This document shows positions 5,685-60,506 of a stretch of 64,000 nt of DNA, one piece after another. The stretch is from Candidatus Methanoperedens sp. GTDB taxonomy: Archaea > Halobacteriota > Methanosarcinia > Methanosarcinales > Methanoperedenaceae. Numbering within the stretch: position 1 is the first letter of the stretch; each line of letters begins with the position of its first letter. The translations under genes and the position numbers were made by a program. The notes under the pieces are model-generated. The model ran no database searches, had not been told where the DNA came from, and saw only the letters and a list, made by a program, of their open reading frames with translations. The DNA lies in NCBI GenBank assembly GCA_026552975.1, contig JAPMTR010000069.1, forward strand, positions 1-64,000, read 5' to 3'.

Positions 5685-6218
5685 TTAAATCCTTTTTTTT
5701 ATTACTTTTGCAGGGACACCAAATGCTATCGAATAGGGTGGAATATCTCTGGTGACCACAGCCCCAGCCCCGATAATCGCTCCTTTGCCTATCGTAACGC
5801 CATCAAGTATTGTTGAATGTGATCCTATCCAGACATCATCCTCGATCCATATTCCTTTACTTACCAGATCTTGTTCAATGATGAGCTTTTCTCTACTTGA
5901 ATAATTGTAGTTTGATCCATGTATTCCCACATGTGGACCTATCAGTACATTATCACCAATTTCTACATTTCCAATATCTGCGTCTATGAAGCAGAAACAA
6001 TTTACAGTGCAATTCTCACCAATTTTTAAAAAACCCCTATTAACTTTTATTTTGACAAAAGAACTTATTCTTGTTTTATTTCCTATTATCAGATTTTTGG
6101 TAAGTTCTATTTCTGATTTTAAAGAAATAAAACAGCGATATTTTATCATTAGATAAATATTCGAAATAAATGAAGGAATCAGTTTTCTCTTAACGAGAGA
6201 ATTTATGTTTACCATCAT
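5685..6218 (-). CDS. Hexapeptide-repeat O-acetyltransferase (LbH fold)
   Basis: 177 residues. The C-terminal two thirds consist of left-handed beta-helix hexapeptides (IGENCTVN, IGDNVLIGPHVGI, IEDDVWIGSHSTI, IGKGAIIGAGAVVT), ending in the usual IPPYSIAFGVPAKVIK. This is typical of the WbbJ/CysE-like transferases that acetylate sugars of surface polysaccharides. I choose the ATG at 6218 because AGAGGT lies 8 bases before it. The gene then overlaps the end of the asparagine synthetase by about 29 bases. It is the last gene of the glycan operon. The acceptor sugar is unknown. Confidence 0.8.
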   Translation of the reverse strand: MMVNINSLVKRKLIPSFISNIYLMIKYRCFISLKSEIELTKNLIIGNKTRISSFVKIKVNRGFLKIGENCTVNCFCFIDADIGNVEIGDNVLIGPHVGIHGSNYNYSSREKLIIEQDLVSKGIWIEDDVWIGSHSTILDGVTIGKGAIIGAGAVVTRDIPPYSIAFGVPAKVIKKRI

Positions 6219-8094
6219 TAATAAATACCTCTGGCTGGATAAATGTCCTGTGCCACATTTCAAGATTCATAAGGGCCCACAATCGATGACTATGGTTTTG
6301 AGTTCCCCTCAAGTGCTGTTCCACCAGTTTATTGAGGTTGGTGGGATCAAAGTTTTCTTTTATTATTTCAGAGTTAAAAAGCATGTCCTGCATATATTCT
6401 TTTAATTCGTATCTTAACCAATTCTTTATTGGAAAACTGAATCCCTGCTTTTTTCTGTTAACTATGTTTTTAGGAAGTAGTTTTAGCATGGATTTCTTTA
6501 AAATATATTTGGTAGTCAGTCCATTCAGCTTCAAGCTACCAGGAATTGTAGCACATAATTCTAAGAATTTATGATCCAGATATGGTACCCTTACCTCCAG
6601 AGCATTCGCCATACTCATACGATCAACTTTAACCAGTACATTATCCACCAGGAAAGATTTCATTTCCATATATTGTTCCCGGGCAACCCTGTCTTTCAGA
6701 TTGCAGGACATATAATAATCATTTAAATGTTCAAAAGGGTTGATATTATTCATCATTTGCCCTAATGCACCCTTATACAGTTCTTTCTCTTCGTTTTTGT
6801 TTGAAAAGTATTGCCACCTCATATGCCACCCATCTAAAGGAAGATCAGAGCCTTCTATAAACCTTTTTACAACATTGATAACCCCTTTTTTCTGTTGTTG
6901 CGGCGGCAGCATACCAACAATATGAGACACAAAATTCTTTCTTAAAAATTCAGGAATAATTCGGTAATAACTGTCCATTTTACTTGCCACGAACCTGTCA
7001 TAACCCAAAAATACCTCATCTCCGCCTTCACCGCTCAAACAAACGGTTACATCCTTCTTTGCCTCTTTACAAAAAAGATACGCAGGTATAAGAGATGGAT
7101 CTGTCATAGGTTCATCCAAGTACCATACAGATTTCTCAAAATGTTCAATTGAACCTGGATCAATAATTATCTCTGTATGATCTGTCCCAAAATAATCTGC
7201 TACCTGCCTTGCATATGGCAGCTCACTATATGACTCATCCTCATAACCTATTGTAAATGTTTTTACAGGTTCATCGGTCATCTGGCTCATTAATCCTACA
7301 ATTGCACTTGAATCAATTCCTCCTGATAAAAAAGCACCCAGAGGAACATCGCTAATGAGCCTTAACCTGACAGACTCCTGTAATAAATTATATATTTGGT
7401 CAGTTAGAACACTTTCATTACTATTTTCTTTTGAGAACTTCAAATCCCAATATTTTGATAATTTTATATCATTGTTCTTAAAAATTAATGTGTGTGCAGG
7501 GGGAAGCTTTTTGATAGATTTGAACAATGTAAATGGAGTGGGAACAAATTCATAACCCATAAAATAATATAAGGACTTATTGTCGACTTCCCTTTTAACC
7601 TCTGGATTTAATAAGATCGCTTTAATCTCAGAAGCAAACATAAACTTTCCAGAATCAAAATAATAATATAAGGGTTTTATGCCAACCCTATCACGGGCAA
7701 GGAAAAACTGCTTATTTTTTGAATCCCAAATTGCAAATGCGAACATCCCCCTGAGTCTTTTAACACAGTCTACCCCCCATTGCTCATAGGCATGAATTAT
7801 TACCTCTGTATCGGTATTTGAAAAGAAACTATGCCCTTGTTTTTCAAGCACATCTCGAAGCTCCTTAAAATTATAGATTTCCCCATTAAATACTATTTGA
7901 AGAGAACCATCCTCATTTTTCATTGGTTGTTTTCCTTTTTCACTAAGGTCTATGATGCTCAACCTGGAATGACCAATAGAAACACCTTCATCCACAAAAT
8001 CTCCTTTCTGGTCTGGCCCTCTATGATCCATTATATTGGCCATATCGCGAATGAGACTTTTATCATCCCAATTAAATCCGCAAATTCCGCACAT
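6190..8094 (-). CDS. asnB: Asparagine synthetase, glutamine-hydrolysing (AsnB family)
   Basis: 634 residues, normal for the family. The mature N-terminal Cys2 nucleophile is present (MCGICGF), with the glutaminase motifs DHRGPDQ and FNGEIYN. The C-terminal synthetase domain carries the PP-loop SGGIDSSA and GEGGDEVF. It transfers glutamine nitrogen to a carboxylate. The sequence alone cannot say whether this is aspartate or a sugar acid or amide in glycan modification. Placement inside a glycosyltransferase operon, 3 bases after the epimerase gene, favours a role in surface polymer synthesis, as with many exopolysaccharide-linked AsnB paralogues. Confidence 0.88.
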   Translation of the reverse strand: MCGICGFNWDDKSLIRDMANIMDHRGPDQKGDFVDEGVSIGHSRLSIIDLSEKGKQPMKNEDGSLQIVFNGEIYNFKELRDVLEKQGHSFFSNTDTEVIIHAYEQWGVDCVKRLRGMFAFAIWDSKNKQFFLARDRVGIKPLYYYFDSGKFMFASEIKAILLNPEVKREVDNKSLYYFMGYEFVPTPFTLFKSIKKLPPAHTLIFKNNDIKLSKYWDLKFSKENSNESVLTDQIYNLLQESVRLRLISDVPLGAFLSGGIDSSAIVGLMSQMTDEPVKTFTIGYEDESYSELPYARQVADYFGTDHTEIIIDPGSIEHFEKSVWYLDEPMTDPSLIPAYLFCKEAKKDVTVCLSGEGGDEVFLGYDRFVASKMDSYYRIIPEFLRKNFVSHIVGMLPPQQQKKGVINVVKRFIEGSDLPLDGWHMRWQYFSNKNEEKELYKGALGQMMNNINPFEHLNDYYMSCNLKDRVAREQYMEMKSFLVDNVLVKVDRMSMANALEVRVPYLDHKFLELCATIPGSLKLNGLTTKYILKKSMLKLLPKNIVNRKKQGFSFPIKNWLRYELKEYMQDMLFNSEIIKENFDPTNLNKLVEQHLRGTQNHSHRLWALMNLEMWHRTFIQPEVFINDGKHKFSR

Positions 8095-8097
8095 ATT

Positions 8098-9081
8098 TTA
8101 TAGATAACCTCTCTCTTTATACCATTTAGCTGTCAGCATAATCCCTGTTCTTACATCTATTTTGGGGTTATACCCAATCTCCTCTTTCGCTTTGGAGATG
8201 TCGAAATATCTTTCACTTACGAAGAAATCAACCCTGCGCCTGAATAAAGGCGGTTCGATCCCGAAAGGGCTGCAAACAATCTCACACAGATAACCTGCAA
8301 CCCAGAAAGGCCAGACTGGAAGATGCCACCTGGGAATAGGTTTTCCCGCAGTATCAGCAATTATGGCTGCTAAATCATTCAAAGTAAAGCATTCACCATC
8401 AGCAATAAGATAAGTTTGTCCCAAAGCCTCCTTTTTTTCAATACATAACAGATATGCATCAACCAGGTTATCAATATATATTAAATGATAATGGGACTTT
8501 CCATCGCCCAGCATGAAGAATTTTCCTGAATCGATCGACTGAAACATTCGAAGCATTCTGGTATCTCCAGGGCCATATATTCCAGCGGGTCTTATAACAA
8601 CAAAAGGTAAATCATATTTGGTACACAATTCTTTTGCCAATTTTTCGCCTTCATACTTGGTCACCTGATAATAATCTCTGGGATCAATTGGTGCATTTTC
8701 ATTTGCTGGCGGGTTGATGATGTGTCCATGCACACCACAGGTGCTGGTAAGTATATACCTTTTTATCCCATGTTTTTTTGCAGCTTCGATCAGTACACGA
8801 TTTGATTCGACATTTGCATCCCAATACACCTGTTTGGGAAGGCTGATCTCTCTAAAAGCTGCTGCTACATGATGAACATAATCTACCCCCTTCATTAATT
8901 TATCAACAAGTTCCTTATCATTAACGCTTCCAATAACAACCTCAACACCCAGTTTCTCAAGTTCTTCACCATAGCCTTTCTTAATATCCAATCCAACTAC
9001 TTCTTCACCATCTTGCGCTAATCTTTTAGCAAGATTAAAACCTGTAAAACCAGTGGTACCTGTTACAAAATGTTTTGACAT
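8098..9081 (-). CDS. NAD-dependent sugar epimerase/dehydratase (extended SDR)
   Basis: 327 residues. The N-terminal Rossmann motif is TGTTGFTG. The catalytic YxxxK is YQVTK near 138-142, preceded by a Ser/Thr stretch (LTSTCGVHG). It most resembles SDRs acting on nucleotide sugars or 3-beta-hydroxysteroid-type substrates (RPAGIYGPGD, RRVDFFVSERYFDISKA). It starts 1 base after the GT4 stop and ends 3 bases before asnB, so it is cotranscribed. It probably makes a nucleotide-sugar donor or modifies a lipid-linked sugar. The exact substrate is unresolved. Confidence 0.8.
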   Translation of the reverse strand: MSKHFVTGTTGFTGFNLAKRLAQDGEEVVGLDIKKGYGEELEKLGVEVVIGSVNDKELVDKLMKGVDYVHHVAAAFREISLPKQVYWDANVESNRVLIEAAKKHGIKRYILTSTCGVHGHIINPPANENAPIDPRDYYQVTKYEGEKLAKELCTKYDLPFVVIRPAGIYGPGDTRMLRMFQSIDSGKFFMLGDGKSHYHLIYIDNLVDAYLLCIEKKEALGQTYLIADGECFTLNDLAAIIADTAGKPIPRWHLPVWPFWVAGYLCEIVCSPFGIEPPLFRRRVDFFVSERYFDISKAKEEIGYNPKIDVRTGIMLTAKWYKERGYL

Positions 9082-9082
9082 G

Positions 9083-10267
9083 TTATTTTTTTCCTCCTGA
9101 ATTTTTATTACACATTCGATAAACTTCCATTATTTTCTCACCCGTTCTATTCCATGAATAATCTCGTACAGCCTTTTCACGGACCTTTATGCCAAGCCTT
9201 TTTGACAATTCTTCATCTCTGAGAAGCGTACAGATTTTCTCAGCCAGGGAATATTGATCCTTTGGGATCGCATATATGCCCAGATCTCCTAATATATCCC
9301 TATTTACCTTATTATCAAATACTACAGTAGGAAGTCCAGTTGCCATATAATTATAGATCTTACCATTGGACTCTGTTTCAGATATTTTCGCAGATACAGC
9401 AATATCCCCCAGAGCCAAATATTCATTTGCTTTTTTATAATCTATCCTTCCTGTGAAAGTGACATTGTCTTTTAATCCAAGTTCCAGGGCAATTTCCTGA
9501 TATTTGTCCACATTCGGATAACCCATAATTAGAAAATGGACATCTTTGAAATCCTTCAAGACCAGGGGAATTGCTTTTAATAAATAGTCAATGCCCTGAT
9601 ATTCATTTAGTAATCCTAGAAAAACTACGATTTTTTTTCCGTCAGGTATTCCGATTTTTTTTTTAAGGGAATTAACTTCAATATCGGGATGAAAAACCTC
9701 AGTATTTACGCCATCTTCTACGATAAAAATTTTCTCTTTTTCAGATTTATATTCTTTTTTGAGAATATCCCCCATCATGTTCGAGCTTACCAGGATGGCA
9801 TTTGGGAACCTATATAACAACATTTCAAACTGGCGTATAGATCTGTAAATAAAGCTTTCTTTTTTGAGAAATCCATGATCTGCCATTTCATTACTTAAAC
9901 TTCCTTGCATATCTGCAACTAAAGGAATGTTCAATAATGAACTGCATATTTTTCCAATAAAGGTACCTTCGTGAAGATGGGCGTGAATAATATCTGGCCT
10001 GCTCTTTCTAATACTATTCAATGATTCGAATAGTAATAGAAGATCAAGATATAGCATATGGTAAGATGGTCCTGCCTCAAGCTTATTATACCAGGGAATA
10101 TTTGGGATTCGTCGAATAGCAATACCTTGAACATCATTCCCATTATGATATGTAGTAGTGATAACTTCATTACCCAGGGATTGCAAGGCTCTTGTTTCTT
10201 CCAGGATCCGTACATGGCATCCCCTATCAGAAAAATATGGAGTCGGCGCGATCATAAGAATTTTCAT
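9083..10267 (-). CDS. Family 4 glycosyltransferase (GT-B fold)
   Basis: 394 residues. The N-terminal half has a GT4-like start (MKILMIAPTPYFSDRGCHVR), which positions an acceptor loop. The C-terminal half has the donor-binding GT4 pattern (VVFLGLLNEYQGIDYLLKA, EX7E-like region ISETESNGKIYNYMATGLP). It transfers a sugar from a nucleotide donor, probably to a lipid-linked glycan on the cytosolic face. It is the second gene of the operon, 26 bases after the GT2 gene and 1 base before the epimerase. Confidence 0.85.
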   Translation of the reverse strand: MKILMIAPTPYFSDRGCHVRILEETRALQSLGNEVITTTYHNGNDVQGIAIRRIPNIPWYNKLEAGPSYHMLYLDLLLLFESLNSIRKSRPDIIHAHLHEGTFIGKICSSLLNIPLVADMQGSLSNEMADHGFLKKESFIYRSIRQFEMLLYRFPNAILVSSNMMGDILKKEYKSEKEKIFIVEDGVNTEVFHPDIEVNSLKKKIGIPDGKKIVVFLGLLNEYQGIDYLLKAIPLVLKDFKDVHFLIMGYPNVDKYQEIALELGLKDNVTFTGRIDYKKANEYLALGDIAVSAKISETESNGKIYNYMATGLPTVVFDNKVNRDILGDLGIYAIPKDQYSLAEKICTLLRDEELSKRLGIKVREKAVRDYSWNRTGEKIMEVYRMCNKNSGGKK

Positions 10268-10293
10268 AATTATCTATCACGGATCAATAAACA

Positions 10294-11259
10294 CTATTTT
10301 ATTCCAATAATCTCTTTCACAGAATATATCGGTTTATTCAAAACCTCATAATATGTCCTGATTATGATCTCACCCAACAATCCCATACTGATAAACTGTA
10401 TCCCCAGGATCGTTAGCAACACAGACAGCATAAGCATGGGTCTTTCTCCGATCCCTACTCCTTGAAATAGCCTGATAAATGCTAAATACCCCCCGATCAA
10501 AATACCCAGAGACCCTGATATGATCCCCGGTATACCAAAAAGCTGCATAGGTCTTGTTGAATAGCTAAGCAGGAACTTCACGGTCATAAGATCAAGGAAA
10601 CCCCTGAACAACCTTGATGCAGAATATTTGGATACCCCGTGTATTCGAGGATTATGTTTCACAGGTATTTCTTTTATGGAAACACCCATCCAGCTTGCAA
10701 CTGCCGGAATATAGCGGTGCATCTCTCCATATAAACGGATACTCTTGATGACATCACGCCTGAAGGCTTTAAGAGTGCAGCCGCTGTCATGCAATTTCAC
10801 CCCAGTCAACTTGAATGCTAACCAGTTAGATATTTTAGAAGGGATCTTCTTTGAGAAGTACGGATCATTCCTATCAGCACGCCACCCGCATACAATATCA
10901 TATCCTTCATTTATATTTTCTATAAATTTTGGTATGTCCTGGGGATCATTCTGTAAATCGCCATCCATAGTTATAATTATATCATTTTTCGCATGATCAA
11001 AACCAGCTGAAAGCGCAGCTGTCTGGCCAAAGTTGCGCCTGAAGCGGATGATCTTTATCGAAGGATCTTTTTCATGAAGTTGTTTTAATACCTCAAAAGT
11101 CCTGTCCGTAGAACCGTCATCGATGAATATGATCTCACTGCTGCTGTATTGCAAAATACTCTTCTTTAATTTTTCATACAGCAAAGGTAAATTCAATTCC
11201 TCGTTAAGAAGTGGTATTACTATTGAGATCGAATTATTCGTTTGAATATGATTATCCAT
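10294..11259 (-). CDS. Membrane-bound family 2 glycosyltransferase (DPM/GtrB-like)
   Basis: 321 residues. GT-A domain: FIDDGSTDRTF near 45-55, the metal-binding DXD as MDGDLQNDP, and GCTLKAFRRDV. Two C-terminal transmembrane helices lie about 235-300. This matches polyprenyl-phosphate glycosyltransferases (dolichol-phosphate-mannose synthase/GtrB/ArnC type), which load a sugar onto dolichyl phosphate for use outside the cell. It is the first gene of the minus-strand glycan operon, with its promoter in the divergent spacer at 11260-11450. Confidence 0.87.
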   Translation of the reverse strand: MDNHIQTNNSISIVIPLLNEELNLPLLYEKLKKSILQYSSSEIIFIDDGSTDRTFEVLKQLHEKDPSIKIIRFRRNFGQTAALSAGFDHAKNDIIITMDGDLQNDPQDIPKFIENINEGYDIVCGWRADRNDPYFSKKIPSKISNWLAFKLTGVKLHDSGCTLKAFRRDVIKSIRLYGEMHRYIPAVASWMGVSIKEIPVKHNPRIHGVSKYSASRLFRGFLDLMTVKFLLSYSTRPMQLFGIPGIISGSLGILIGGYLAFIRLFQGVGIGERPMLMLSVLLTILGIQFISMGLLGEIIIRTYYEVLNKPIYSVKEIIGIK

Positions 11260-11451
11260 ATGAATATATCACAATAAATATCAAATTACTTATACATTTG
11301 CATCATTTTTATTTCAAGACATAGTAAAGTTTAAATATATTTCATTATCCTGCTCCAGAGTTATCTAAAGAAAATGTCCATAATTTTGCTATTGCAAGCA
11401 TATATATATTCATTCCAATATTTAGTTATATTTAAAAAGGCGAGCTTTCGA

Positions 11452-12315
11452 ATGCAAAAGTTAAAAAAAATACCCTTAGATCTTCTAATACTGCTTTTAT
11501 GGATGCTACTTGCATTGGTTGTGGCTTCCAATCCATTTTTCAGCAAAACTTTTATATCTAAACTAATTTTGGCGCCAGTATTACTTTTCATACCGGGTTA
11601 TGCGATGACAATTGCATTATACCCCAAACGGGATGACCTGGAAACCATAGAACGCATTGCTCTGAGCTTTGGCATCAGTATAGCAGCAGTTCCGCTATTT
11701 GGTCTGGTCTTAAGCTTTACCTCAGGAATAAAACTAACTTCAATAATGACCTCTCTTTTTCTATTTACATTGATCTTAGTATTAATTGCAACTTTCAGGC
11801 AGAGAAAACTTCATGAAGACCAGCGATTTTATGTCCGGTCCAACAAATTATTAGATTTGATCGATAATGAATTCAATTCCAATAAAACGGTAAAAGATCG
11901 ATTATCTACAGGAATACTTATTTTTACCCTTGTTCTTGCAATAAGCCTGGTCTATTTTGTGATCACCGTTCCCAAGATCGGGGAAAAATTCACTGAATTC
12001 TATATTCTCGGACAGGAAGGTAAAGCAGATAATTATAGCACAGAATTAAAATTCAATTCTCCGTCCCAGGTCTTAATTGGAGTAGCAAATCATGAATATG
12101 TTCCGGTCAATTATACAGTTCAGGTAGTCCTTGAAAAAGAAATTATGACAGATATCTGGTTCAGTCTGGACCACGATGAGACCTGGGAACAAAATGTTAC
12201 TTATGTACCGGAAAAAACAGGAAAAAACTTAAAGCTTGAGTTCTGGCTTTTCAAAGAAGATAATTTTACAGCTCCTTATCGAGAATTGAATATGTGGGTG
12301 AACATAGGAACATGA
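11452..12315 (+). CDS. DUF1616-type membrane protein
   Basis: 287 residues from ATG 11452. The frame is open back to 11374, adding an odd hydrophobic 26-residue leader, so the start is uncertain. Several N-terminal membrane helices carry the DUF1616 pattern (FIPGYAMTIALYP, DDLETIERIALSFGIS). A further helix near 155-175 leads to an extracellular beta domain (YTVQVVLEKE...DETWEQNVTYVPEKTGKNLKLEFWLF). DUF1616 proteins are often found with archaeal S-layer or sorting genes, but no activity is known to me. The stop overlaps the next start (ATGA), so the two genes are translationally coupled. Confidence 0.72.
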   Translation: MQKLKKIPLDLLILLLWMLLALVVASNPFFSKTFISKLILAPVLLFIPGYAMTIALYPKRDDLETIERIALSFGISIAAVPLFGLVLSFTSGIKLTSIMTSLFLFTLILVLIATFRQRKLHEDQRFYVRSNKLLDLIDNEFNSNKTVKDRLSTGILIFTLVLAISLVYFVITVPKIGEKFTEFYILGQEGKADNYSTELKFNSPSQVLIGVANHEYVPVNYTVQVVLEKEIMTDIWFSLDHDETWEQNVTYVPEKTGKNLKLEFWLFKEDNFTAPYRELNMWVNIGT

Positions 12316-13064
12316 AAAAAGGGATCTTTCTTGCTTCACTTGGAATAGTATTTGGTGAGATGAGCCTGTTCCTGGGTCATACCTATTCAGGGATAGCGAT
12401 CCATATTATAAACCTTCAAATATTAACACTTGCCATCATTTTCGGACGATTTTCGTCATATAGCAAAAATGTGTTTCAAAGCCTGATATTATTACTGTTA
12501 TTACGTATAGTCAATATTGCGATGCCCCAGTTCTTCACGACCACGTTGCTCTGGTATTCACTGATCTATGGTGTCATGTTCCTGCCGATCTATATTATAA
12601 TAAATAACCAGAATATGACCCTTGAAGACCTGGGGCTCAATTCCAGGCGCTTGCACTTGTACCTGCCTGCTGCTCTTTTGATCGGTACTGCAGCAGCTTT
12701 GGTGGAACGAAGGATCATTGATCCGATCCCTCTCATAGACTCTATGAACATTTCAGGTCTTTTAATGTTAACAATAGTTATGTTCATTTTTGTAGGTGCA
12801 GTTGAGGAACTCATATTCAGGTCAATACTTCAAACAAGACTTGAAAAAGTACTGGGTTTAAAACCCGCGATCCTTCTTAGTGGAATATTATTTGGGATAA
12901 TGCATTCAAATTATGGCATAGTGAACGAGATAATATTTGCAAGTGTTTTTGGGATAATCCTGGGTTATATTTTCCAGAAAACAAGAAGTTTTCCATTTAT
13001 TTTAATAATTCATGGTTATGCAAATATACTCTTATTTGGCCTGATACCTATACTATCAACATGA
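12312..13064 (+). CDS. CPBP (CAAX/Rce1-like) intramembrane metalloprotease
   Basis: 250 residues, about eight membrane helices. All three CPBP motifs are visible: EELIFR (EExxxR), FGIMH (FxxxH) and a late HGYAN. These are glutamyl/metal-type intramembrane proteases that cleave membrane-embedded substrates. The ATG at 12312 overlaps the DUF1616 stop, with GGTGA 9 bases upstream. Its place facing an archaeosortase operon suggests a part in maturing anchored surface proteins. That link is inference. The last 17 bases overlap the convergent small gene. Confidence 0.85.
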   Translation: MKKGIFLASLGIVFGEMSLFLGHTYSGIAIHIINLQILTLAIIFGRFSSYSKNVFQSLILLLLLRIVNIAMPQFFTTTLLWYSLIYGVMFLPIYIIINNQNMTLEDLGLNSRRLHLYLPAALLIGTAAALVERRIIDPIPLIDSMNISGLLMLTIVMFIFVGAVEELIFRSILQTRLEKVLGLKPAILLSGILFGIMHSNYGIVNEIIFASVFGIILGYIFQKTRSFPFILIIHGYANILLFGLIPILST

Positions 13065-13281
13065 TCTTATAAACTACAATTCCTGCAAAAGTGAGCAGGA
13101 GAGGATTGGAACACGCTTCAAGTGTAGATGAAGCATTGAGTGTAAGGTATTTAGAATCCGAGATCAAAAGTCCTATCCCAAGAGAAATTACAAGAGATAA
13201 CGTAACAAGTACTTCAGTTTGCGATACTACCTCGGATGGGAATGATGTTTGCACATTTGAAATTGCTGCTATCAGGCTCAT
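13048..13281 (-). CDS. Small two-helix membrane protein, last gene of sortase operon
   Basis: 77 residues with two predicted membrane helices (about 25-42 and 57-75). I do not recognise the family. It looks real because AGAGGA sits 9 bases before the ATG at 13281. It also follows the EpsI-like gene by only 24 bases on the same strand. It overlaps the end of the CPBP gene on the other strand. Possibly an accessory membrane subunit of the sorting machinery (inference only). Confidence 0.55.
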   Translation of the reverse strand: MSLIAAISNVQTSFPSEVVSQTEVLVTLSLVISLGIGLLISDSKYLTLNASSTLEACSNPLLLTFAGIVVYKIMLIV

Positions 13282-13305
13282 GTGAATTTTTCCTCTTGAT
13301 ATTAC

Positions 13306-14100
13306 TTATTTATTTCGTCTTATCCCTTTGAAAACTAGAGAGAGTGGAACTAACAGGATCATTGCTATGGCAAAAACCCCTTTATTTCCATATTCCTTGA
13401 TAATATATTCAGCAGAAGTAATATTGTCTGGTTTTCCACTTTCATACATAGCCTCGAATAACTCTTTTTCTACAAAACCCTTTATTGAATCAAAGGTGGC
13501 ATTATAGTTTTCTTTGACCGGGGACGAAAGACGGATCATGCTAACTGCGTCATTTTCACCAAATCTCTTGAACATGAACCAGTATACCATTACCTGTTCT
13601 TGACTATTGAAATTATTATTTATATCAAGCCTGTAGGCATAAAGTCTGGTGAAAGGATTCGGGGGGTCGGCGATCCTGAATTCAACGATGCTTTTATTAT
13701 TGATAGTCCATGAACCTTCAAGACAAATTTCCGGACTATGAAAGCTTTCGCCCACTTTGCTATTGATCAGGTCCATCCATATTATATCATTGCCTGAAGA
13801 ATAAGCCCGGCTTAAGAATATATCTGCTTTTAAACTTGCATATACCGAATCTGAATATTTAAAATCAGACCCATTCCAGTTTCCCAAATTCATGGGAAAA
13901 GATCTTATGTCTTCCTTATTGCTGTATTCATAAGCTGTCCTGATAAGCAGGCGATTCTTAGATTCGTATAAGTAACTTATATCTGCTACTGTATAATCAG
14001 CAACATCTTTTGGGGCAAGAAGGAATATCAAAATATATGAAAAAGAAATTAATCCTATAAGGATCAAAAGATTTTTTTGAATCGTAGCCGTCCAAAACAC
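13306..14100 (-). CDS. EpsI-like (DUF3485) exosortase-associated protein
   Basis: 264 residues from GTG 14100; the frame is open to TTG 14136. An N-terminal membrane helix is followed by an extracytoplasmic domain with the EpsI hallmark HSPEICLEGSWTI, and a late YWFMFKRFG segment. A C-terminal helix ends FKGIRRNK. EpsI domains accompany exosortases in bacterial exopolysaccharide/PEP-CTERM clusters. Here the gene directly follows, and overlaps by about 37 bases, an archaeosortase gene. GGGAGG lies immediately at the GTG, so the exact start is uncertain. Its biochemical role is not established. Confidence 0.78.
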   Translation of the reverse strand: MFWTATIQKNLLILIGLISFSYILIFLLAPKDVADYTVADISYLYESKNRLLIRTAYEYSNKEDIRSFPMNLGNWNGSDFKYSDSVYASLKADIFLSRAYSSGNDIIWMDLINSKVGESFHSPEICLEGSWTINNKSIVEFRIADPPNPFTRLYAYRLDINNNFNSQEQVMVYWFMFKRFGENDAVSMIRLSSPVKENYNATFDSIKGFVEKELFEAMYESGKPDNITSAEYIIKEYGNKGVFAIAMILLVPLSLVFKGIRRNK

Positions 14101-14879
14101 CTCCCTATAAGAAATAATCCTGAAAGGACAACACAAAACAGCAGAAGGCTTGAAAAGTCATGGAAATAATTCATGGCTGTTTCCTGGCCATATTTATTGG
14201 CAACAGCAAGCACAGAGGTGATCCTCATAATGTTTCCAGCTAGAGCTAATGGAATAGAGGATATTATTATGGTAAACTTCATTAACATCCCTCCTTCCAG
14301 GATAAATGCATATATCACTGCTATAGTGAAAAGTGAGATTATGGAATTTATTCCGCTGCATGCGTAGGCTACTTCAAATGAACCTGAAGGGATTTTGAGT
14401 ATAAGTCCTTCCCTCACAACAGGCAAACCAGCAAGATTTGCAAGGGAAGTGGTGCCAATCGCAGATAACATCTGTGTCGGAGATGCAATGATATCAACGA
14501 TAGGTAAAGGTATCATCAAAACCAGGAAAACAAGGGGAAAACTGATCTTTTTCAAAAATTCCCAGCCGAATAAATACAATATCATACCAGAGCCTGTTAC
14601 TAAAAGAGATATACCGGATATGAACCTTATACTCCAGAGTACTCCTATTCCTTGAAGCAGTATACCAAACGCAATAATTCCAAGACCGGTCTGGGATTGT
14701 CTCCTTTCTACAAGTGCAAGTTCCTTACGTAAGGTCCATATAATATACCCTGAGATGATCGGTACAAGGAAGCCATGGGAATAATATTCATTGTTTATCC
14801 ATGATCCGGCCAACCAGCTAAAAGTATCGAAATAAAAAATCCCAAATGCAGCGATAAACGCCAATAATATATAATTCAT
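14064..14879 (-). CDS. Archaeosortase/exosortase transpeptidase
   Basis: 271 residues, roughly eight membrane helices. The three catalytic residues known for exosortases are present: Cys in AYACSGINS (near 174), Arg in AGNIMRITS (near 219) and His in NYFHDFSS (near 240). The enzyme is expected to recognise C-terminal tripartite signals on exported proteins, cleave there and pass the protein to a lipid anchor. I choose ATG 14879; TTG 14885 would give a TTGA overlap with the upstream stop. The adjacent PEF-CTERM-like gene is the likely substrate. Several PGF-CTERM proteins elsewhere in the window may use a different enzyme. Confidence 0.9.
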   Translation of the reverse strand: MNYILLAFIAAFGIFYFDTFSWLAGSWINNEYYSHGFLVPIISGYIIWTLRKELALVERRQSQTGLGIIAFGILLQGIGVLWSIRFISGISLLVTGSGMILYLFGWEFLKKISFPLVFLVLMIPLPIVDIIASPTQMLSAIGTTSLANLAGLPVVREGLILKIPSGSFEVAYACSGINSIISLFTIAVIYAFILEGGMLMKFTIIISSIPLALAGNIMRITSVLAVANKYGQETAMNYFHDFSSLLLFCVVLSGLFLIGRCFGRLRFKKIF

Positions 14880-14881
14880 AT

Positions 14882-16012
14882 TCAAACTTTTATTCTGATC
14901 TTATCATTTGCCAGTGATATAACTTTGCCGGGTTCTATTTTTATTTCCTGTATATTTTTCATAATAATTGCATCTTCAGTGATTTGGGTTACCTGGAATT
15001 CCCCGTATTTATTTTCAATATTAATGACTTTATTACTTCCATATTGAATGATATCAAACACGATACTTTCTGGATATATTTCCCGTGGGATGATGCGGAT
15101 CATCTTTTCCTTTCTTAAGTCGTTTATTTCCCTCCAGTATTCAACCGGAGAATTATCCAGGCTGGCTATATCCCATAACTTTTTATTGTTCCTTGAAATC
15201 CTGAATTTTACTGCATTTTTATCCATTTGGATCAAAGTAACCATATAACCATTTTTCAATTCTAAATTTTCATTGATCTTTAATGTCTTGTTAAAATCCT
15301 CTACAATAACAGGAGTTAAAAATTTTGCAGAATTTGGAAGAGTTTTTTCATATGTTTCACCTAAAAATATAATATTTCTTCCTTTGCTGGCAGTTGTATA
15401 GATCGCATCTTCTTTACTGACAATTTCATTTGTTGGTCTTAGCTCAAGTTTTTCCCCTGTTTTAAAGGAATACATGATAATACCATTTAACAATTGAATG
15501 TTATAATTATCAGTAGGTTCTAAACCCATCGAATCTACAGTAATGGAGTTCTGTGGCGAAATTGGGGCGACCATTTCAATGGGTTTAAGGCCATAATTTG
15601 CAAGAGAAACCTGGAATACTCTTGTCCTGTAGAGCTCATTATTTCTATAAAGCAAGAACTCAAGCTTCTGGTAATCACTGGTTAGATTGGGAATAAATGC
15701 TATGGTCTGGTTAAGGCCTTTATTGCTGTCAAGACTAATTTGCTGATCATAAACTATTTCTCCTGCAGATCGAACTTTTAGATCATAATTCCAGTTAATA
15801 CCTTCCTGGTTCTCAATGATCGTTCTGTAAGATACAGGTTTTCCAATTGCCATTTCTTCATTTTCATCTATGACGAAGAACCTGGTAGTTAACTCAGGTT
15901 GAACATTAGGTTCATCTACCATCAACTCGGTAAACGCTAATGCTGCCACCAATCCTGCAGCACCATATATAATTATGAGGAGGATCGGTATTATTCTATT
16001 TGTATTACTCAT
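14882..16012 (-). CDS. Membrane-anchored protein with S-layer-duplication-like domain
   Basis: 376 residues. It has one N-terminal membrane helix (about 8-28), then a beta domain resembling the outer domain of the nearby DUF1616 protein (KPVSYRTIIEN...LEFLLYRNNELYRTR). The C-terminal half is close to the archaeal S-layer duplication domain (LKINENLELKNGYMVTLIQM, AVKFRISRNNKKLWD). It is probably a scaffold outside the cell, tied to the S-layer and the sorting enzyme. It lies 7 bases after the PEF-CTERM-like gene and touches the archaeosortase gene, so it is in the same operon. Function is inferred from domains and context only. Confidence 0.65.
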   Translation of the reverse strand: MSNTNRIIPILLIIIYGAAGLVAALAFTELMVDEPNVQPELTTRFFVIDENEEMAIGKPVSYRTIIENQEGINWNYDLKVRSAGEIVYDQQISLDSNKGLNQTIAFIPNLTSDYQKLEFLLYRNNELYRTRVFQVSLANYGLKPIEMVAPISPQNSITVDSMGLEPTDNYNIQLLNGIIMYSFKTGEKLELRPTNEIVSKEDAIYTTASKGRNIIFLGETYEKTLPNSAKFLTPVIVEDFNKTLKINENLELKNGYMVTLIQMDKNAVKFRISRNNKKLWDIASLDNSPVEYWREINDLRKEKMIRIIPREIYPESIVFDIIQYGSNKVINIENKYGEFQVTQITEDAIIMKNIQEIKIEPGKVISLANDKIRIKV

Positions 16013-16019
16013 ATAATGT

Positions 16020-16637
16020 CTAATTACTCCTATATTTCTTGAGTATTAAAGCAATTCCCATCAACCCTGCCGACATCATGATGATCGGACTTAGCTCTGG
16101 TACTGGCGGGATAGGTGTTATGGCTTTTCTCCAGCAGGAATCAGCAGATCCATCCGCATTGAGCCCACATTCCTTTCCATCAATAATATGGAACAATATG
16201 TCTTCACTGATTGGTATTTTATCAAATGATTTATAATCTGCCCTACCAACTTCTATACCTTTGGTACCATCAATAAGGATCTCTTTACCTCCATTCCCTC
16301 TTTCAAATCCGAAATAATCCTTTTTATTTGGATGCCATATAGCAGTGAGTTCCAGGGGGATCAAATCTTTGGTTTCTCCTGTAAAAACTGGTTCCGGATA
16401 TACACAATAACCAATAACCCTGGCATCACCCGGTGCTCCAGAAAAAGTATTCAATATATACGTCACAACATTTCTATTTGTACTCGTGGAAGAAGACAGG
16501 TATTCATAAGTTGGAACATTAATATTTCCCCTGCATCCCCCTCCCTTTCCGTTGTTTTCGATTTCCTTTGCATATACAGTTCCCATTGATAATAGGATTA
16601 TAAGAATGATTCCTATCCCTAATGTCTGTTTATACAT
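16020..16637 (-). CDS. Exported protein with PEF-CTERM-like sorting signal
   Basis: 205 residues. A signal peptide ends near TVYAKE. The mature part has a Gly/Asn-rich start and four Cys, which could form disulfides. The C-terminus has the tripartite layout of a sorting signal: a PIPPVPELSP motif, a helix of about 16 hydrophobic residues, then KKYRSN. It resembles PEF-CTERM rather than the PGF-CTERM seen elsewhere in the window. As first gene of the archaeosortase operon it is the natural dedicated substrate. The role of the mature domain is unknown. Confidence 0.75.
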   Translation of the reverse strand: MYKQTLGIGIILIILLSMGTVYAKEIENNGKGGGCRGNINVPTYEYLSSSTSTNRNVVTYILNTFSGAPGDARVIGYCVYPEPVFTGETKDLIPLELTAIWHPNKKDYFGFERGNGGKEILIDGTKGIEVGRADYKSFDKIPISEDILFHIIDGKECGLNADGSADSCWRKAITPIPPVPELSPIIMMSAGLMGIALILKKYRSN

Positions 16638-16815: not shown

Positions 16816-17721
16816 TCATGATATCGACCACAACCGCCCGAATGGACTATTATAAAGATACCCTGTAAATTCTGAGACATCCCTGTTCTGGCTCCCAAAT
16901 AACAATCGGGAAAGTGATGGCTTGTTTGAATATCCGACTTTCGGCTTTCCACTTAAACCCCCAAGTTGCGCAGCGACCTTGATCGCATCATCAAAGCTTC
17001 CAAGCTCATCCACAAGTCCAAGTTCTTTTGCTTTAATTCCAGTATAAATTCTTCCATCAGCAAGATCCTTTACCTTGCTTAATGACAGATTCCTATCCTG
17101 TGCGACCTCCTGGACAAAACGGTTGTAAGCTTCTAGGATCACCTGGTCAGCATACTGTTTTTCAGTATCGGATAATCCTTTCCAGTCCCCTCCCATATCC
17201 TTGAGTTCCCCGGATTTCGCAATATAAAATGAAGTGCCATCTTTATCATAGAATTTTGACCTGTTCTGGAATTCCCAGATCACGCCTATGCTTCCTGTCA
17301 TAGTATCGGGATTGGCAATTATCCTATCCGCTGGCGCACTTATATAATATGCAGCGCTTGCGGCCACATCACCCATTGATATCACTATGGGTTTATCGAT
17401 CTTCTTCATTCTCGATACGATCTCCTGGGCCGATGCCGGAGACCCGCCGGGGCTGTTTACTCTTAAGACTATGGCTTTCACATTCTCATCTTCATCCGCT
17501 TCATCCAGGCTCTGGGTGATCTCCTCGGAAGTAGCTATCCCAAAACCCGTAGGGACACTTCCAGTAAGCATCAGACCCTGGACATAGATCACTTCCACCC
17601 TGCCTTTGGATATTCCAAGGTCCTTCCCGCCCAGGATCAAATAAAAAGAACCAGCTATAATAGACAGCAATAAAAATATTGAGAAAATATACAGTAATAT
17701 TTTCTTTGATGATCCAGTCAT
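16816..17721 (-). CDS. sppA: Signal peptide peptidase SppA (S49 serine protease)
   Basis: 301 residues. One N-terminal membrane helix (7-30) is followed by a ClpP-like protease core. By family comparison Ser122 in GDVAASAAYY is the nucleophile and Lys169 in IAKSGELKDMG the general base, as in short bacterial and archaeal SppA. PGGSPASAQE and GSIGVI are also diagnostic. It degrades signal-peptide remnants or damaged membrane proteins at the outer face of the membrane. It begins 22 bases after the AtwA stop, so the two genes are probably cotranscribed. The functional link to AtwA is not obvious. Confidence 0.9.
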   Translation of the reverse strand: MTGSSKKILLYIFSIFLLLSIIAGSFYLILGGKDLGISKGRVEVIYVQGLMLTGSVPTGFGIATSEEITQSLDEADEDENVKAIVLRVNSPGGSPASAQEIVSRMKKIDKPIVISMGDVAASAAYYISAPADRIIANPDTMTGSIGVIWEFQNRSKFYDKDGTSFYIAKSGELKDMGGDWKGLSDTEKQYADQVILEAYNRFVQEVAQDRNLSLSKVKDLADGRIYTGIKAKELGLVDELGSFDDAIKVAAQLGGLSGKPKVGYSNKPSLSRLLFGSQNRDVSEFTGYLYNSPFGRLWSIS

Positions 17722-17743: not shown

Positions 17744-19453
17744 TTACTCATCAATGCACCGGTCAAGATATTTTGCATGACTGGCTTTGATGAACTCATC
17801 ACAGACTTTTCCAGGTTCTCCGTCCATCACAATATGTCCCTTATCGATCAATATAGCTCTCTGGGCTACTTCACGTATGAAATCAACATGATGACTTATA
17901 AATATTATCGTAGTATTAAAAGTCTTATTGACGTTCTTAAGTGAATTTGCCACATCCCGCAGAGTAATTGGGTCAAGATCTCCAAATGGTTCATCAAGAA
18001 GTAATATGGATGGTTTTGAGCAAAGTGCAAGAGCAAGAGCTGACCTTACATTTTCCCCGCCGCTTATCTGGTATGGTTTAACATCAAGAACACCTATAGG
18101 CAGATCCATAGCATCAAATACTGGTTTTGCGAATTTGAGTACTTCCGTAAGAGGATAACTCGGGAACAGAACTCCAAGGATCGCTGGGGTATAGCCCATC
18201 TTTGCAAGCCTTTCCTTTCCATTTTCCTCCGGCATATCGGTCATCCTGTACATTTCATCCAGGTCTACATCAGAAATACCAAGTTCTTTTGCCTTTTTTC
18301 TCGCCTCTTCAATGACATTCTGTCCTTTTACACCTAACCTGAAGGCAAGCTGCTGCTTGATCGTTGAATGCGGTGAAAGGGCGAACTCCTGGTACATGAT
18401 ACTTGTAATTCTCCTGACTTCCATTCTTTTGGGGGAATATGTTGACATTTCAACCCAGTCATCATCTACACGGAATTCTATTTCGCCTTCATCAGGGAAA
18501 ATAAGCCCGTCCATGGCATGAAGCAATGTAGTCTTTCCGGCACCGCTTGGGCCTATGAGTGCTGTGATCTCACCCTGTTTGAATTCAAGATTGATATTCT
18601 CAAGATCAAGGACTTCTCCCTGCCTGACAAGCCAGTATCTCTTGGAAAGATTGTTCACCTTTATCACTGTTTTATCTGATGTCCTTTTGGGCATCGGGAT
18701 AGCAGGCTTCATATTACTGGTGAATTTCCTTAAGATCTCTTCGGGTGGTCCTTCTGCTATGATTTTCCCGTTTTCAAGCCACAATACACGGTCTGCAATA
18801 TATGCATGGATCTCAGGCAGGTGGGATACCACAATTGTTGTCAGGTTTAATTCTTTATTAATGTTCTTTATTGTGTCAAGAACTCCCTGTTTTGTTGCAG
18901 GGCATGTCATCGTGGCTGGTTCATCAAGAAGAAGAAGTTTGGGTTTTGATGCTAGCTGTCTTGCGATCAATAACCTTTGTTTTTCTCCCCCACTTAATAC
19001 CTGGGAGAAATGTTCTGCCTTTGAATCAAGATTTACAAGCTTTAAATACCTCAAGCTTTCTTCATAACATTCATCATAATAAGGAGAATCCCTATCAGGA
19101 AGAGATTCATATCCGAATTTTTCCGCATATACGCGGCGCAGTACGTTTTCATAAGTTGCTCCAGACCACAATCCAAAATTCCTCTGCAGGTGGATAGCAG
19201 CCATTTTCTGGAGTTTCTTTATGTCTTCTAATGAAGCATCAGGTTTAATTGTAAATCCGTCCAGCTCAAAACTGCCCCCTTTAAATGGTTCCGTTCCCCT
19301 GAGTACTTTTAATATCGTTGACTTCCCTCCCCCGCTTCTTCCGATTATTCCAAGTATTTCACCCTGTTTTACCTCGAAACTTACGCCATCCAGAACCCTA
19401 ATAGTATCGGAATCGATTATATAGTCTTTTACCAGATTATTAACTTTGAGCAT
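17744..19453 (-). CDS. atwA: Methyl-coenzyme M reductase system component A2 (tandem ABC ATPase)
   Basis: 569 residues, two ABC ATPase domains in one chain. The Walker A motifs are GRSGGGKST near 38-46 and GPSGAGKTT in the second half. Signatures are LSGGEKQR and ISGGENVR, with Walker B LLLLDEPA and LLLDEPFGDLD. No membrane segments. The family is the ATP-dependent activator of methyl-coenzyme M reductase, which brings the Ni of F430 to the active Ni(I) state. It is found in methanogens and in methane/alkane-oxidising archaea, so it is the strongest clue to lifestyle here. It is divergent from the TPR gene across an AT-rich promoter region. Confidence 0.9.
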   Translation of the reverse strand: MLKVNNLVKDYIIDSDTIRVLDGVSFEVKQGEILGIIGRSGGGKSTILKVLRGTEPFKGGSFELDGFTIKPDASLEDIKKLQKMAAIHLQRNFGLWSGATYENVLRRVYAEKFGYESLPDRDSPYYDECYEESLRYLKLVNLDSKAEHFSQVLSGGEKQRLLIARQLASKPKLLLLDEPATMTCPATKQGVLDTIKNINKELNLTTIVVSHLPEIHAYIADRVLWLENGKIIAEGPPEEILRKFTSNMKPAIPMPKRTSDKTVIKVNNLSKRYWLVRQGEVLDLENINLEFKQGEITALIGPSGAGKTTLLHAMDGLIFPDEGEIEFRVDDDWVEMSTYSPKRMEVRRITSIMYQEFALSPHSTIKQQLAFRLGVKGQNVIEEARKKAKELGISDVDLDEMYRMTDMPEENGKERLAKMGYTPAILGVLFPSYPLTEVLKFAKPVFDAMDLPIGVLDVKPYQISGGENVRSALALALCSKPSILLLDEPFGDLDPITLRDVANSLKNVNKTFNTTIIFISHHVDFIREVAQRAILIDKGHIVMDGEPGKVCDEFIKASHAKYLDRCIDE

Positions 19454-20725: not shown

Positions 20726-22024
20726 ATGAAAAAAAGATTCACCTTAATATTATTATTGATACTGATCACCCCTGCTTTTGCCGGGGACTGGAATATGTTC
20801 AAAAATGATGCTACACGCTCTGGATATTCAGATGATGTGGTAAATGCGCCCTTAACTTTGAAATGGACAAAAGAGCTTGGGTTTGAAACAGATTCATCCC
20901 CTGTAATAGCAAATGACGTTCTTTATATCGGTTCAACATATGGTATATTTGCACTTGACGCAAAAACAGGGAATGAACTCTGGAGATATCATACTAACGG
21001 CTTTATAACCTCAGTTCCTGCGGTGTCTAATGGTGTTGTTTATATCGGAGCTGATGACAGGAAATTCTATGCGATTGATGCAAAAAATGGGACCCTTAAA
21101 TGGATGAATGACAACTCACTCGATGGGTATAGCGCTTCGGCAGTAGTTCTTAATAATGTTGTTTATGCGATTCCAAAGGATGGTACATTCTATGCTTTTG
21201 ACGGCAATAATGGTCAGATCGTCTGGTCAACTCTTATTGGAAAAAGATCAGAATCATCACCTGCTGTTGGGGATGGGATAATTGGATTTGGAACGGATCG
21301 CGGTGAAATAGTTGCACTTGATGCCGCCACAGGAAAACTAAAATGGAGCTATGATACTGGCGTTTCTGACATCAGGTCATCACCAGTAATTACAAATGGA
21401 ACAATTATCGTCGGCTCAAACGATGGATCGATATACGCCCTGACTACAGAGAAAGGGGCTCTTAAATGGAAATATTCCACACGAGACAATGTCGAATCAT
21501 CGCCTGCAGTAAAAAATGGCATTGTTTACGCAGGCTCGAGAGATTCCGGTTTCCTTGCAATAGATTCAGAAACTGGAAATACTAGATGGAAGTTCCCTGA
21601 CTCCGGTCAGGTCATCTCTTCTCCTGCAATTTCGAACAATGTTGTATATTTTGGCACAAAAAATAACTTTATATATGGTCTTGATGCTAATACCGGTCAA
21701 CGATTATGGAGAAATTCGACAGGTCCAAATGATAAAGATTACATCACATCTCCCGCCATTTCGGGTAATGTTCTTTATGCAGCAACACATAGCGGTATTA
21801 TCTACGCATTTTCTTCAGGAAAAGAATCCGCTCAAACGCCATCAATAGAAAAAACAACAGGTGCCCCGGTCATATCGCCCACTCCAACAATTTCTACGAC
21901 CCGGGTGGATCCAACAACTTCAAGTCCCCAGCCCGAGCAAACTGAGAAATCCCCGGGATTTGAATATTCAGTTTTAGTAATATTGGTAACTGGAGTAATT
22001 AGTATATATTTCAAGAAAAAATAA
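20726..22024 (+). CDS. Exported PQQ-like beta-propeller protein with PGF-CTERM anchor
   Basis: 432 residues. A short signal peptide (1-18, ends PAFAG) precedes about seven PQQ/BamB-type blades with GxLKW/GxxxW strand ends (GTLKW, GQIVW, GKLKWSY, GALKWKY, GNTRWKF, GQRLWRN). A Thr/Pro/Ser-rich linker follows. The C-terminus is SPGFE, a hydrophobic helix and FKKK, a PGF-CTERM sorting signal. The protein is expected to be lipid-anchored on the outside. Such propellers bind partners or redox cofactors; I see no catalytic residues to decide. GGGAGA gives a good ribosome-binding site. Confidence 0.88.
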   Translation: MKKRFTLILLLILITPAFAGDWNMFKNDATRSGYSDDVVNAPLTLKWTKELGFETDSSPVIANDVLYIGSTYGIFALDAKTGNELWRYHTNGFITSVPAVSNGVVYIGADDRKFYAIDAKNGTLKWMNDNSLDGYSASAVVLNNVVYAIPKDGTFYAFDGNNGQIVWSTLIGKRSESSPAVGDGIIGFGTDRGEIVALDAATGKLKWSYDTGVSDIRSSPVITNGTIIVGSNDGSIYALTTEKGALKWKYSTRDNVESSPAVKNGIVYAGSRDSGFLAIDSETGNTRWKFPDSGQVISSPAISNNVVYFGTKNNFIYGLDANTGQRLWRNSTGPNDKDYITSPAISGNVLYAATHSGIIYAFSSGKESAQTPSIEKTTGAPVISPTPTISTTRVDPTTSSPQPEQTEKSPGFEYSVLVILVTGVISIYFKKK

Positions 22025-29430: not shown

Positions 29431-30007
29431 GATATTTGTTACAGATACTCATGCTTTATTGTGGTACCTTACCGGGATTGAAAGCTGGGATTATGTTGGA
29501 AAAAACGGAAAGGTGTGGGTGAAAGTGCAGAACATTCCTTTTGGCTCGACAACCATTATTCGAATATATTATGGAAATCAAATTGCGAGCACCGCAAGTA
29601 ATGGAGATAAAACATTTGAGTTTTTTGACGATTTTGAAAATAATAATTTTAAAAAATGGGATTTATCAACTGGGTGGGCCATATCCCCACTTTCTTATCA
29701 GGCTGATTATAGTGCCTATGCCGCTGGTATATACCATGAATTAGAAAAGTCGATAAATATGAACAAGGGGATTTTTGAGGGAAGCTTCAAATTTACTGAA
29801 ATAAATCAGTATCATTACCCTTATATTTCTCCTTTTGATTCAAGTTGTGGAAATGGTGAACCCCCATATTTGCTATCTACAAAACCAGATGGACATTTTG
29901 GATATTGGCCAGTTCCAGGAATCCACGATCAAAATCCTGATAGAGAACTCCGGCACCTCAGAAGTCAAAGCCATCGAAATAATGGACTCCATCCATCTCA
30001 GCTTTGA
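29390..30007 (+). pseudogene. VapC toxin start fused in frame to a DUF2341 fragment
   Basis: The frame opens inside the antitoxin gene. Its residues 14-29 (PEIFVTDTHALLWYLTG) are the N-terminus of a PIN-domain VapC, including the first catalytic Asp. At about 29477-29480 it switches to a DUF2341 segment (IESWDYVGKNGKVWVKVQNI, then RIYYGNQ and FEFFDDFE). DUF2341 is an extracellular beta domain, normally found far into long exported proteins. After about 29920 the frame reads nonsense through the 5' end of another gene remnant. No signal peptide or anchor is present, so a working product is unlikely. Confidence 0.72.
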
Positions 30008-35793: not shown

Positions 35794-36063
35794 TATACCT
35801 CTCTCCTTTTGATTGTTACTTAACAAAAGGTTTATGAGCGGATTAATTTTGCGGTCGTTTGACTGTGATTATTTTTTATTTCATATCACAAAAAGTTTAT
35901 GAGTGACTTTTTAACTGATATTGTGTTTTTAATATCTTTTTATTAAATTCTACAAGATATTAAACTATTAAAAACTAAAATATCCTGAAATAAACATTAA
36001 AAATCAAGATAAATCGAAATAATTATCGTATTATTTATATTGTAGTATGGCTAATAAGTAATT

Positions 36064-60365: not shown

Positions 60366-60506
60366 AAATATCGCCAACCTTATTGGACTTTTGAAACTAA
60401 TAATGTTTGCGCTTTAAGCAAAAAATCTTCAACTTAAAATTTTCCTGCCTTAAATATATCGCAAAAGTGTTATCGTTATTTAAATTCATTGGTTACCCTG
60501 GTTATT

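What the first reader, a model, noticed from the sequence alone, without database searches (positions are those of the whole stretch)
11374..16637. Compact archaeosortase locus with one dedicated PEF-CTERM-like substrate
Substrate, S-layer-domain protein, archaeosortase, EpsI-like protein and a 77-residue membrane protein form one operon. It faces a coupled DUF1616/CPBP protease pair. EpsI with an archaeal sortase recalls bacterial exopolysaccharide exosortase loci. The whole looks like a self-contained export, cleavage and anchoring unit with its own intramembrane protease.
Basis: partly seen in the sequence, partly recalled or inferred. Interest (0 to 1): 0.62.

Follow-up and report, generated by a model that had tools for sequence, protein, structure and literature searches.

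The report
Bacterial-type exosortase system in methane-eating archaeon
This stretch of a methane-oxidising archaeon encodes a protein-anchoring enzyme of the bacterial 'exosortase' kind with its helper protein and a surface protein that carries its sorting tag; the tag is absent from the curated libraries searched, and enzyme and tag occur together in several archaeal groups, including one reported to lack such enzymes.

Summary
The genes are real and ordered as described. The window lies in a Candidatus Methanoperedens (ANME-2d) MAG. The 'archaeosortase' is an EpsH-type exosortase: TIGR02602 154.9 bits (cut-off 105.55), ArtC 33.9 (cut-off 100), no ArtA match. ArtA (three matches), ArtC and their PGF/PEF-tagged proteins lie elsewhere in the genome. 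The substrate tail, PVPEL-(hydrophobic)-basic, is matched by no NCBIfam or Pfam model. The same tail ends at least ten unrelated ectodomain groups and tracks the sortase across genomes: 60 relatives, Fisher p=3e-9; tails remote from the sortase, p=2e-7; 12 phylogenetically independent pairs, none contrary; a phylum sample, 24 of 32 sortase genomes against 3 of 262 others. Exosortase and EpsI form the constant core, with a 37-nt overlap in 12 loci. DUF1616-CPBP-TM77 is a separable module: near the exosortase in 21 of 33 archaeal loci (1 of 47 bacterial), but also in genomes lacking it. 'One dedicated substrate' is wrong: a second tagged protein lies on another contig, and relatives carry up to 11. 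Best reading: an archaeal EpsH/EpsI sorting system for PEL-CTERM proteins, with a CPBP module probably acting downstream. New variant of a known kind. Chemistry is inferred, not shown.

The parts
16020..16637 (-). PEL-CTERM substrate, 205 aa: N-terminal hydrophobic signal, unknown ectodomain, tail PVPELSPIIMMSAGLMGIALILKKYR
   Evidence: tail model E=2.2e-14; no NCBIfam match; two hydrophobic stretches, 5-23 and 181-199
16029..16106 (-). PEL-CTERM sorting signal
14882..16012 (-). S-layer-related protein, 376 aa: N-terminal TM, DUF1616-like ectodomain, partial S-layer domain; not constant in relatives
   Evidence: PF07752 35.8 bits, PF07760 33.3; one TM at 7-25; homologues in 5 other Methanoperedens-family loci
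14064..14879 (-). Exosortase (EpsH type), 271 aa from ATG; C176, R221 and H242 (numbered on the 273-aa ORF) are the candidate catalytic residues
   Evidence: TIGR02602 154.9 bits; PF09721 192.6; conservation; tree
13306..14100 (-). EpsI-like protein (DUF3485), about 265 aa: TM - alpha/beta ectodomain - TM; overlaps the exosortase gene by 37 nt
   Evidence: PF11984 42.5 bits; invariant W, R, Y, H, C, R; model pLDDT 82.5; overlap
13048..13281 (-). 77-aa protein with two hydrophobic stretches; travels with CPBP/DUF1616
   Evidence: at CPBP in loci with and without the sortase
12312..13064 (+). CPBP (Rce1-like) glutamic intramembrane protease, 250 aa, motifs EELIFR and HGYAN
   Evidence: PF02517 69.1 bits; motifs kept in all listed homologues
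11455..12315 (+). DUF1616 protein, 286 aa: five TM helices and a CARDB/Ig-like ectodomain (ORF listed from 11374)
   Evidence: (PF07760 254 bits)
5685..11259 (-). Neighbouring polysaccharide-type gene block (acetyltransferase, amidotransferase, epimerase, GT4, GT2); context, not shown to belong
   Evidence: amidotransferase: TIGR03108 623.9 bits, under its cut-off 816.9, but above AsnB 537.1; same block beside a PEL-CTERM gene and DUF1616 in L176

Best explanation
An archaeal branch of the exosortase (EpsH/EpsI) sorting systems. Tagged proteins are exported by their N-terminal signal and stop in the membrane at the C-terminal tail: PVPEL motif, hydrophobic helix, basic end. The exosortase cuts at or near the PEL motif with its Cys-Arg-His site and most likely moves the new C-terminus onto another molecule (a lipid or glycan), leaving the protein on the cell surface. 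EpsI, always encoded with it, assists at the outer face of the membrane. The DUF1616-CPBP-TM77 module, often encoded nearby, probably acts after cleavage; destruction of the leftover tail helix by CPBP is my guess. Shown by sequence: family membership, the shared tail on unrelated proteins, co-occurrence of tail and enzyme, constancy of EpsI, the recurring but non-exclusive CPBP neighbourhood. Inferred: cleavage, the attached group, EpsI's task, CPBP's task.
For: Exosortase over the curated cut-off of TIGR02602 and of PF09721; ArtC 33.9 against 100, ArtA not matched. C176, R221 invariant and H242 near-invariant in 16 homologues. The tree puts archaeosortases far away on long branches; archaeal and Chloroflexota forms lie outside a clade (SH-aLRT 98) of 34 sequences, nearly all from bacteria, many with classic PEP-CTERM tails nearby. 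One tail on at least ten unrelated ectodomain groups. Tail and enzyme co-occur: 17/3/3/37 in 60 relatives; remote tails only 15/5/3/37; 12 independent pairs on an rpoB tree, 8.5 concordant and 0 contrary on average, p about 0.008; phylum sample 24/8/3/259, p=3e-25, genomes the tail model was not built on. PEL/PEA tails next to the exosortase in Altiarchaeota, Methanophagales and Argoarchaeum, PEA/PEW in Chloroflexota. CPBP near 21 of 33 archaeal but 1 of 47 bacterial exosortases.
Against: No biochemical data. The TIGR02914 (EpsI) cut-off is not reached (19.9 against 42.8). Some genomes have tails but no exosortase found (G010, G013, G052) and the reverse (G036, G050, G055); incomplete MAGs and divergent tails may explain it, but this was not tested. 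One homologue (L030) has Glu in place of the catalytic His. The phylum association is dominated by one family (f10), so its p-value overstates the independent evidence. The tail model was built from tails found beside the sortase; the remote-tail and phylum tests answer this only in part.
Confidence: 0.8

Rival explanations
1. It is an archaeosortase (ArtC-like) locus, the tail being a divergent PEF-CTERM signal handled by the common archaeal machinery.
For: TIGR03762 (ArtC) matches weakly; PEL and PEF tails look alike (P-E-hydrophobic).
Against: The genome has a separate clear ArtC (270 bits) with a PEF-CTERM gene close by and three PEF tails in all; TIGR03024 does not find this tail; the tree separates the groups by very long branches; PEL tails follow this exosortase across genomes.
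Confidence: 0.07
2. CPBP is itself the sorting enzyme for these tails, in the manner of myxosortase, and the exosortase acts on something else.
For: CPBP proteases act as sortases for MYXO-CTERM proteins (PMC11980579); CPBP matches Mrt models weakly; it lies beside the exosortase in most archaeal loci.
Against: MYXO-CTERM needs an invariant Cys, and the PEL tail has none; Mrt_core 20.6 bits against a cut-off of 100; CPBP occurs at similar identity in genomes without PEL tails (G004, G006-G008, G017, G021), and Argoarchaeum has many PEL tails without CPBP next to its exosortase.
Confidence: 0.07
3. The DUF1616-CPBP-TM77 module is unrelated to sorting and merely shares a cell-surface island with the exosortase (a rival to the CPBP step only, not to the exosortase reading).
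For: It stands alone beside a GT2 gene in sortase-less Methanoperedens and near PGF-CTERM proteins in other Methanosarcinales; it is degraded or deleted beside the exosortase in L034 and L035.
Against: Proximity recurs in Methanoperedens, ANME-2, Methanophagales, Altiarchaeota, Archaeoglobus and one Chloroflexota locus, but almost never in bacteria.
Confidence: 0.3

Closest known systems
PEP-CTERM/EpsH (exosortase A) systems of bacteria
   Same: EpsH-type exosortase above TIGR02602, EpsI next to it, tripartite C-terminal tail, polysaccharide-type genes nearby
   Different: Archaeal host without outer membrane; tail PEL/PEA not recognised by PEP-CTERM models; enzyme under the XrtA cut-off (179.6 against 208); CPBP/DUF1616 module nearby; few substrates in Methanoperedens
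ArtC/PEF-CTERM and ArtA/PGF-CTERM archaeosortases
   Same: Archaeal surface sorting with tripartite tail; distant common family (PF09721/TIGR04178); both occur elsewhere in this genome
   Different: Different enzyme branch, no EpsI match at the ArtC locus examined, different tail
XrtE exosortase/protease fusion (TIGR04162)
   Same: Links an exosortase with a protease (by its curated name; the CAAX/CPBP nature of the XrtE protease domain is from memory)
   Different: Here two separate genes; the exosortase scores only 18.3 bits against TIGR04162
Myxosortases (CPBP sorting enzymes, PMC11980579)
   Same: CPBP protease of the same Pfam family with both motifs
   Different: No Cys in the tail, far under Mrt cut-offs

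Membership tests
Exosortase (TIGR02602/PF09721) | Curated model score | tested here: met
   154.9 over 105.55 and 192.6 over 25.7 bits
Exosortase (TIGR02602/PF09721) | Conserved Cys, Arg, His | tested here: met
   C176 and R221 invariant, H242 in 15 of 16
Exosortase (TIGR02602/PF09721) | Cleaves tagged proteins | not testable with these tools
   Needs biochemistry
Exosortase A equivalog (TIGR03109) | Curated model score | tested here: not met
   179.6 under 208 bits
PEP-CTERM signal | Match to NCBIfam/Pfam signal models | tested here: not met
   No match for the window substrate at E<=0.1 in NCBIfam or at E<=1 in Pfam; only sub-threshold PEP-CTERM family hits for it and some homologues
Archaeosortase C/PEF-CTERM | Enzyme and tail models | tested here: not met
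   Enzyme 33.9 under 100 bits; tail not found by TIGR03024
Archaeosortase A/PGF-CTERM | Enzyme model TIGR04125 | tested here: not met
   No match at E<=1; ArtA matches lie on other contigs
EpsI | TIGR02914 cut-off | tested here: not met
   19.9 under 42.8 bits
EpsI | DUF3485 (PF11984) and place next to the exosortase | tested here: met
   42.5 over 26.1 bits; next to it in nearly all relatives whose locus reaches that far
Myxosortase | Mrt_core score and invariant Cys in the tail | tested here: not met
   20.6 under 100 bits; no Cys in the tail
CPBP intramembrane protease | PF02517 and EExxxR, HxxxN motifs | tested here: met
   69.1 over 22.4 bits; EELIFR, HGYAN

The most novel reading that the evidence does not exclude
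A distinct class of exosortase systems for cells without an outer membrane (archaea and Chloroflexota), with its own PEL/PEA tail and, in archaea, a dedicated second step in which a CPBP protease with DUF1616 and TM77 finishes or clears the reaction; it would be a major surface-anchoring route in ANME archaea, including ANME-1, for proteins at the partner or electrode interface.
Probability: 0.25. Interest if true: 0.72.

Novelty: new variant of a known kind. Interest (0 to 1): 0.52.

Why it matters
The founding survey of the PEP-CTERM/EpsH system reported none in Archaea and noted that the lineages without examples lack an outer membrane (PMC1569441). A later ANME survey only counted EpsH domains (one in one ANME-1 and one in one ANME-2d dataset) and concluded that ANME-1 lacks ArtA and ArtC and has no sorting signals in its multihaem genes (PMC5244752). 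Here an EpsH/EpsI enzyme and a predicted tag occur together in ANME-2d, ANME-2, Argoarchaeum, Methanophagales (ANME-1), Altiarchaeota and Archaeoglobales. The tag gives a searchable list of surface proteins of uncultured methane and alkane oxidisers, cells whose surface contacts with partners are an open question, and it lets a third enzyme-tag pair be tested in a genome that already holds ArtA/PGF and ArtC/PEF.

Tried and rejected
ArtA/ArtC assignment: rejected. SppA (16816-17721) as part of the unit: no homologue appears near the sortase in the relatives' loci. TM77 as part of the sortase module: rejected, it stays with CPBP where the sortase is missing. EpsI fold search: best hits weak (E about 1e-3, TM-score 0.2-0.4) but repeatedly of the PsbP/Mog1/LpqN/Eag-chaperone kind; SciW/EagT6 bind TM helices, so a tail-binding role is a lead only. 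Viral fold library: nothing useful. Rfam: no match. DUF1616 ectodomain: CARDB/Ig-like, typical of surface proteins, not diagnostic. An AsnB-like amidotransferase as a true XrtA-system protein: under the curated cut-off.
Full report
What is there. Minus strand: substrate 16020-16637, S-layer/DUF1616-like protein 14882-16012, sortase 14064-14879, EpsI-like 13306-14100, 77-aa membrane protein 13048-13281. Plus strand: DUF1616 11455-12315 and CPBP 12312-13064, joined by an ATGA overlap and convergent with the 77-aa gene. Corrected starts rest on homologues and on the sequence. The host is a Candidatus Methanoperedens genome: closest named hits are Methanoperedens and Methanoperedenaceae; G000 itself is 2.57 Mb in 121 contigs, 93.6% complete.

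The sortase is an exosortase. NCBIfam gives TIGR02602 exosortase 154.9 bits (cut-off 105.55), XrtA 179.6 (208), ArtC 33.9 (100), no ArtA. The genome holds its own ArtC (270 bits) with three PEF-CTERM genes, and three ArtA matches, one with a TGA in frame, with ten PGF-like tails at E<=0.01, three over the cut-off. So three enzyme-tag pairs appear to coexist. In the tree the archaeosortases lie on very long branches; window relatives from Methanosarcinales, Methanophagales, Altiarchaeota and Archaeoglobales, with Chloroflexota, fall outside a group (SH-aLRT 98) of 34 sequences, nearly all from bacteria (Omnitrophota, Nitrospirota, Acidobacteriota and others), many with classic PEP-CTERM genes nearby. 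The quick method and long branches make the inner order unsure. In the sortase tree the window groups with L085 and L086 (SH-aLRT 91), whereas the rpoB tree places G000 with G018 and far from G015 and G027, and needs 14 changes of sortase presence: a patchy gene, probably transferred and lost often.

The tag. Tails beside the sortase share PVPEL-S/T-hydrophobic-basic. A 26-column model finds two proteins in the own genome: the window substrate (E=2e-14) and a 215-aa protein on contig C62 (E=0.001, ending PVPELSGLVLTLAGISGLMILSKIRKE), the latter homologous in its ectodomain to tagged proteins of relatives. In 60 relatives tail (E<1e-6) and sortase agree in 54 genomes (17 both, 37 neither, 3 and 3 otherwise; p=2.7e-9; within the genus 10/0/2/19). 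Counting only tails on other contigs or more than 20 kb away: 15/5/3/37, p=1.7e-7. On an rpoB tree, 12 independent contrasts give on average 8.5 concordant, none contrary, p about 0.008. The tail sits on at least ten unrelated ectodomain groups, the mark of a sorting signal. NCBIfam has no match at E<=0.1 for the window substrate, the C62 protein, L113 or L115.

EpsI. It follows the sortase in nearly every relative whose locus reaches that far, with an identical 37-nt overlap in 12 loci, so the conserved sortase C-terminus GRCFGRLRFKKIF is partly dual-coding. Invariant residues include W76, R99, Y101, H122, C127, Y174 and R191. The model (pLDDT 82.5) is TM - mixed alpha/beta domain - TM. Fold hits are weak but consistently PsbP/Mog1/LpqN/Eag-like. 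An invariant His, Cys and Arg leave open that EpsI is itself an enzyme.

The CPBP module. CPBP keeps EExxxR and HxxxN in all listed homologues. It lies 0.4-6.8 kb from the exosortase in 21 of 33 archaeal loci but in 1 of 47 bacterial loci (several missing cases are short contigs). Yet DUF1616-CPBP-TM77 also occurs in Methanoperedens genomes without the exosortase, usually beside a 232-280 aa GT2 gene, and in other Methanosarcinales near PGF-CTERM proteins. Beside the exosortase DUF1616 is truncated in L034, and CPBP and DUF1616 are gone in L035 while TM77 remains. It is therefore a separable partner. DUF1616 has five TM helices and a CARDB/Ig-like outer domain; the window's S-layer-related protein reuses that outer domain.

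Mechanism. By analogy with exosortases and ArtA (established for the families, not shown here): Sec export, arrest at the tail, cleavage by the Cys-Arg-His site near PEL, transfer to an acceptor. EpsI as helper rests on its constancy; CPBP as tail remover or second-step protease rests on recurring proximity, its membrane-embedded active site and the lack of a myxosortase-type Cys. The S-layer-related protein, in about half of the Methanoperedens-family loci, may link the anchored substrate to the S-layer (guess).

Known versus new. Haft 2006 (PMC1569441) reported no PEP-CTERM in Archaea. Timmers 2017 (PMC5244752) counted single EpsH domains in one ANME-1 and one ANME-2d dataset without context. 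Searches of the open literature for exosortase with Altiarchaea or Methanophagales gave nothing; subscription papers, including Haft 2012, could not be read, so earlier mention is possible. I rate it a new variant of a known kind.

Noticed in passing
L174:3880-7816 (G019 contig C30): GT2, PEL-CTERM protein, EpsI, TM77, CPBP and DUF1616 in a row but without an exosortase gene; that genome's exosortase, with its own EpsI, is on another contig. A second, sortase-less set acting in trans?
   Followed up: partly
L030:9539-10354 (also L086): Exosortase homologue with Glu in place of the otherwise conserved catalytic His (NYFEGFSN instead of NYFHDFSS), though the genome has three PEL-CTERM proteins.
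   Followed up: no
G013, G010, G052: PEL-CTERM proteins but no exosortase found; G013 is given as 97% complete.
   Followed up: no
window 20726-22024, 29835-30722, 30761-32071, 33841-35826, 59355-60377, 62441-63502: Six further proteins end in PGF/PGI-like tails (candidate ArtA substrates); 33841-35826 matches TIGR03788 'sortase target protein' at 227 bits, under its cut-off.
   Followed up: partly
window 5685-11259 and L176:416-7126: The same polysaccharide gene block (acetyltransferase, amidotransferase scoring higher to the XrtA-system amidotransferase TIGR03108 than to AsnB, epimerase, GT4, GT2) stands in another species beside a PEL-CTERM gene and DUF1616.
   Followed up: partly
G000 contig C104:15197-15976: A third ArtA-like gene with an in-frame TGA.
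   Followed up: no
window 17744-19453: Two-ATPase protein resembling methyl-CoM reductase component A2 (TIGR03269 323 bits, under its cut-off).
   Followed up: no
60-relative and 295-genome samples: In the samples the exosortase was found mainly in families that by named hits hold methane or alkane oxidisers, and in none of the listed family-f5 genomes, which are mostly closed and probably Methanosarcinaceae. Family identities are inferred.
   Followed up: partly
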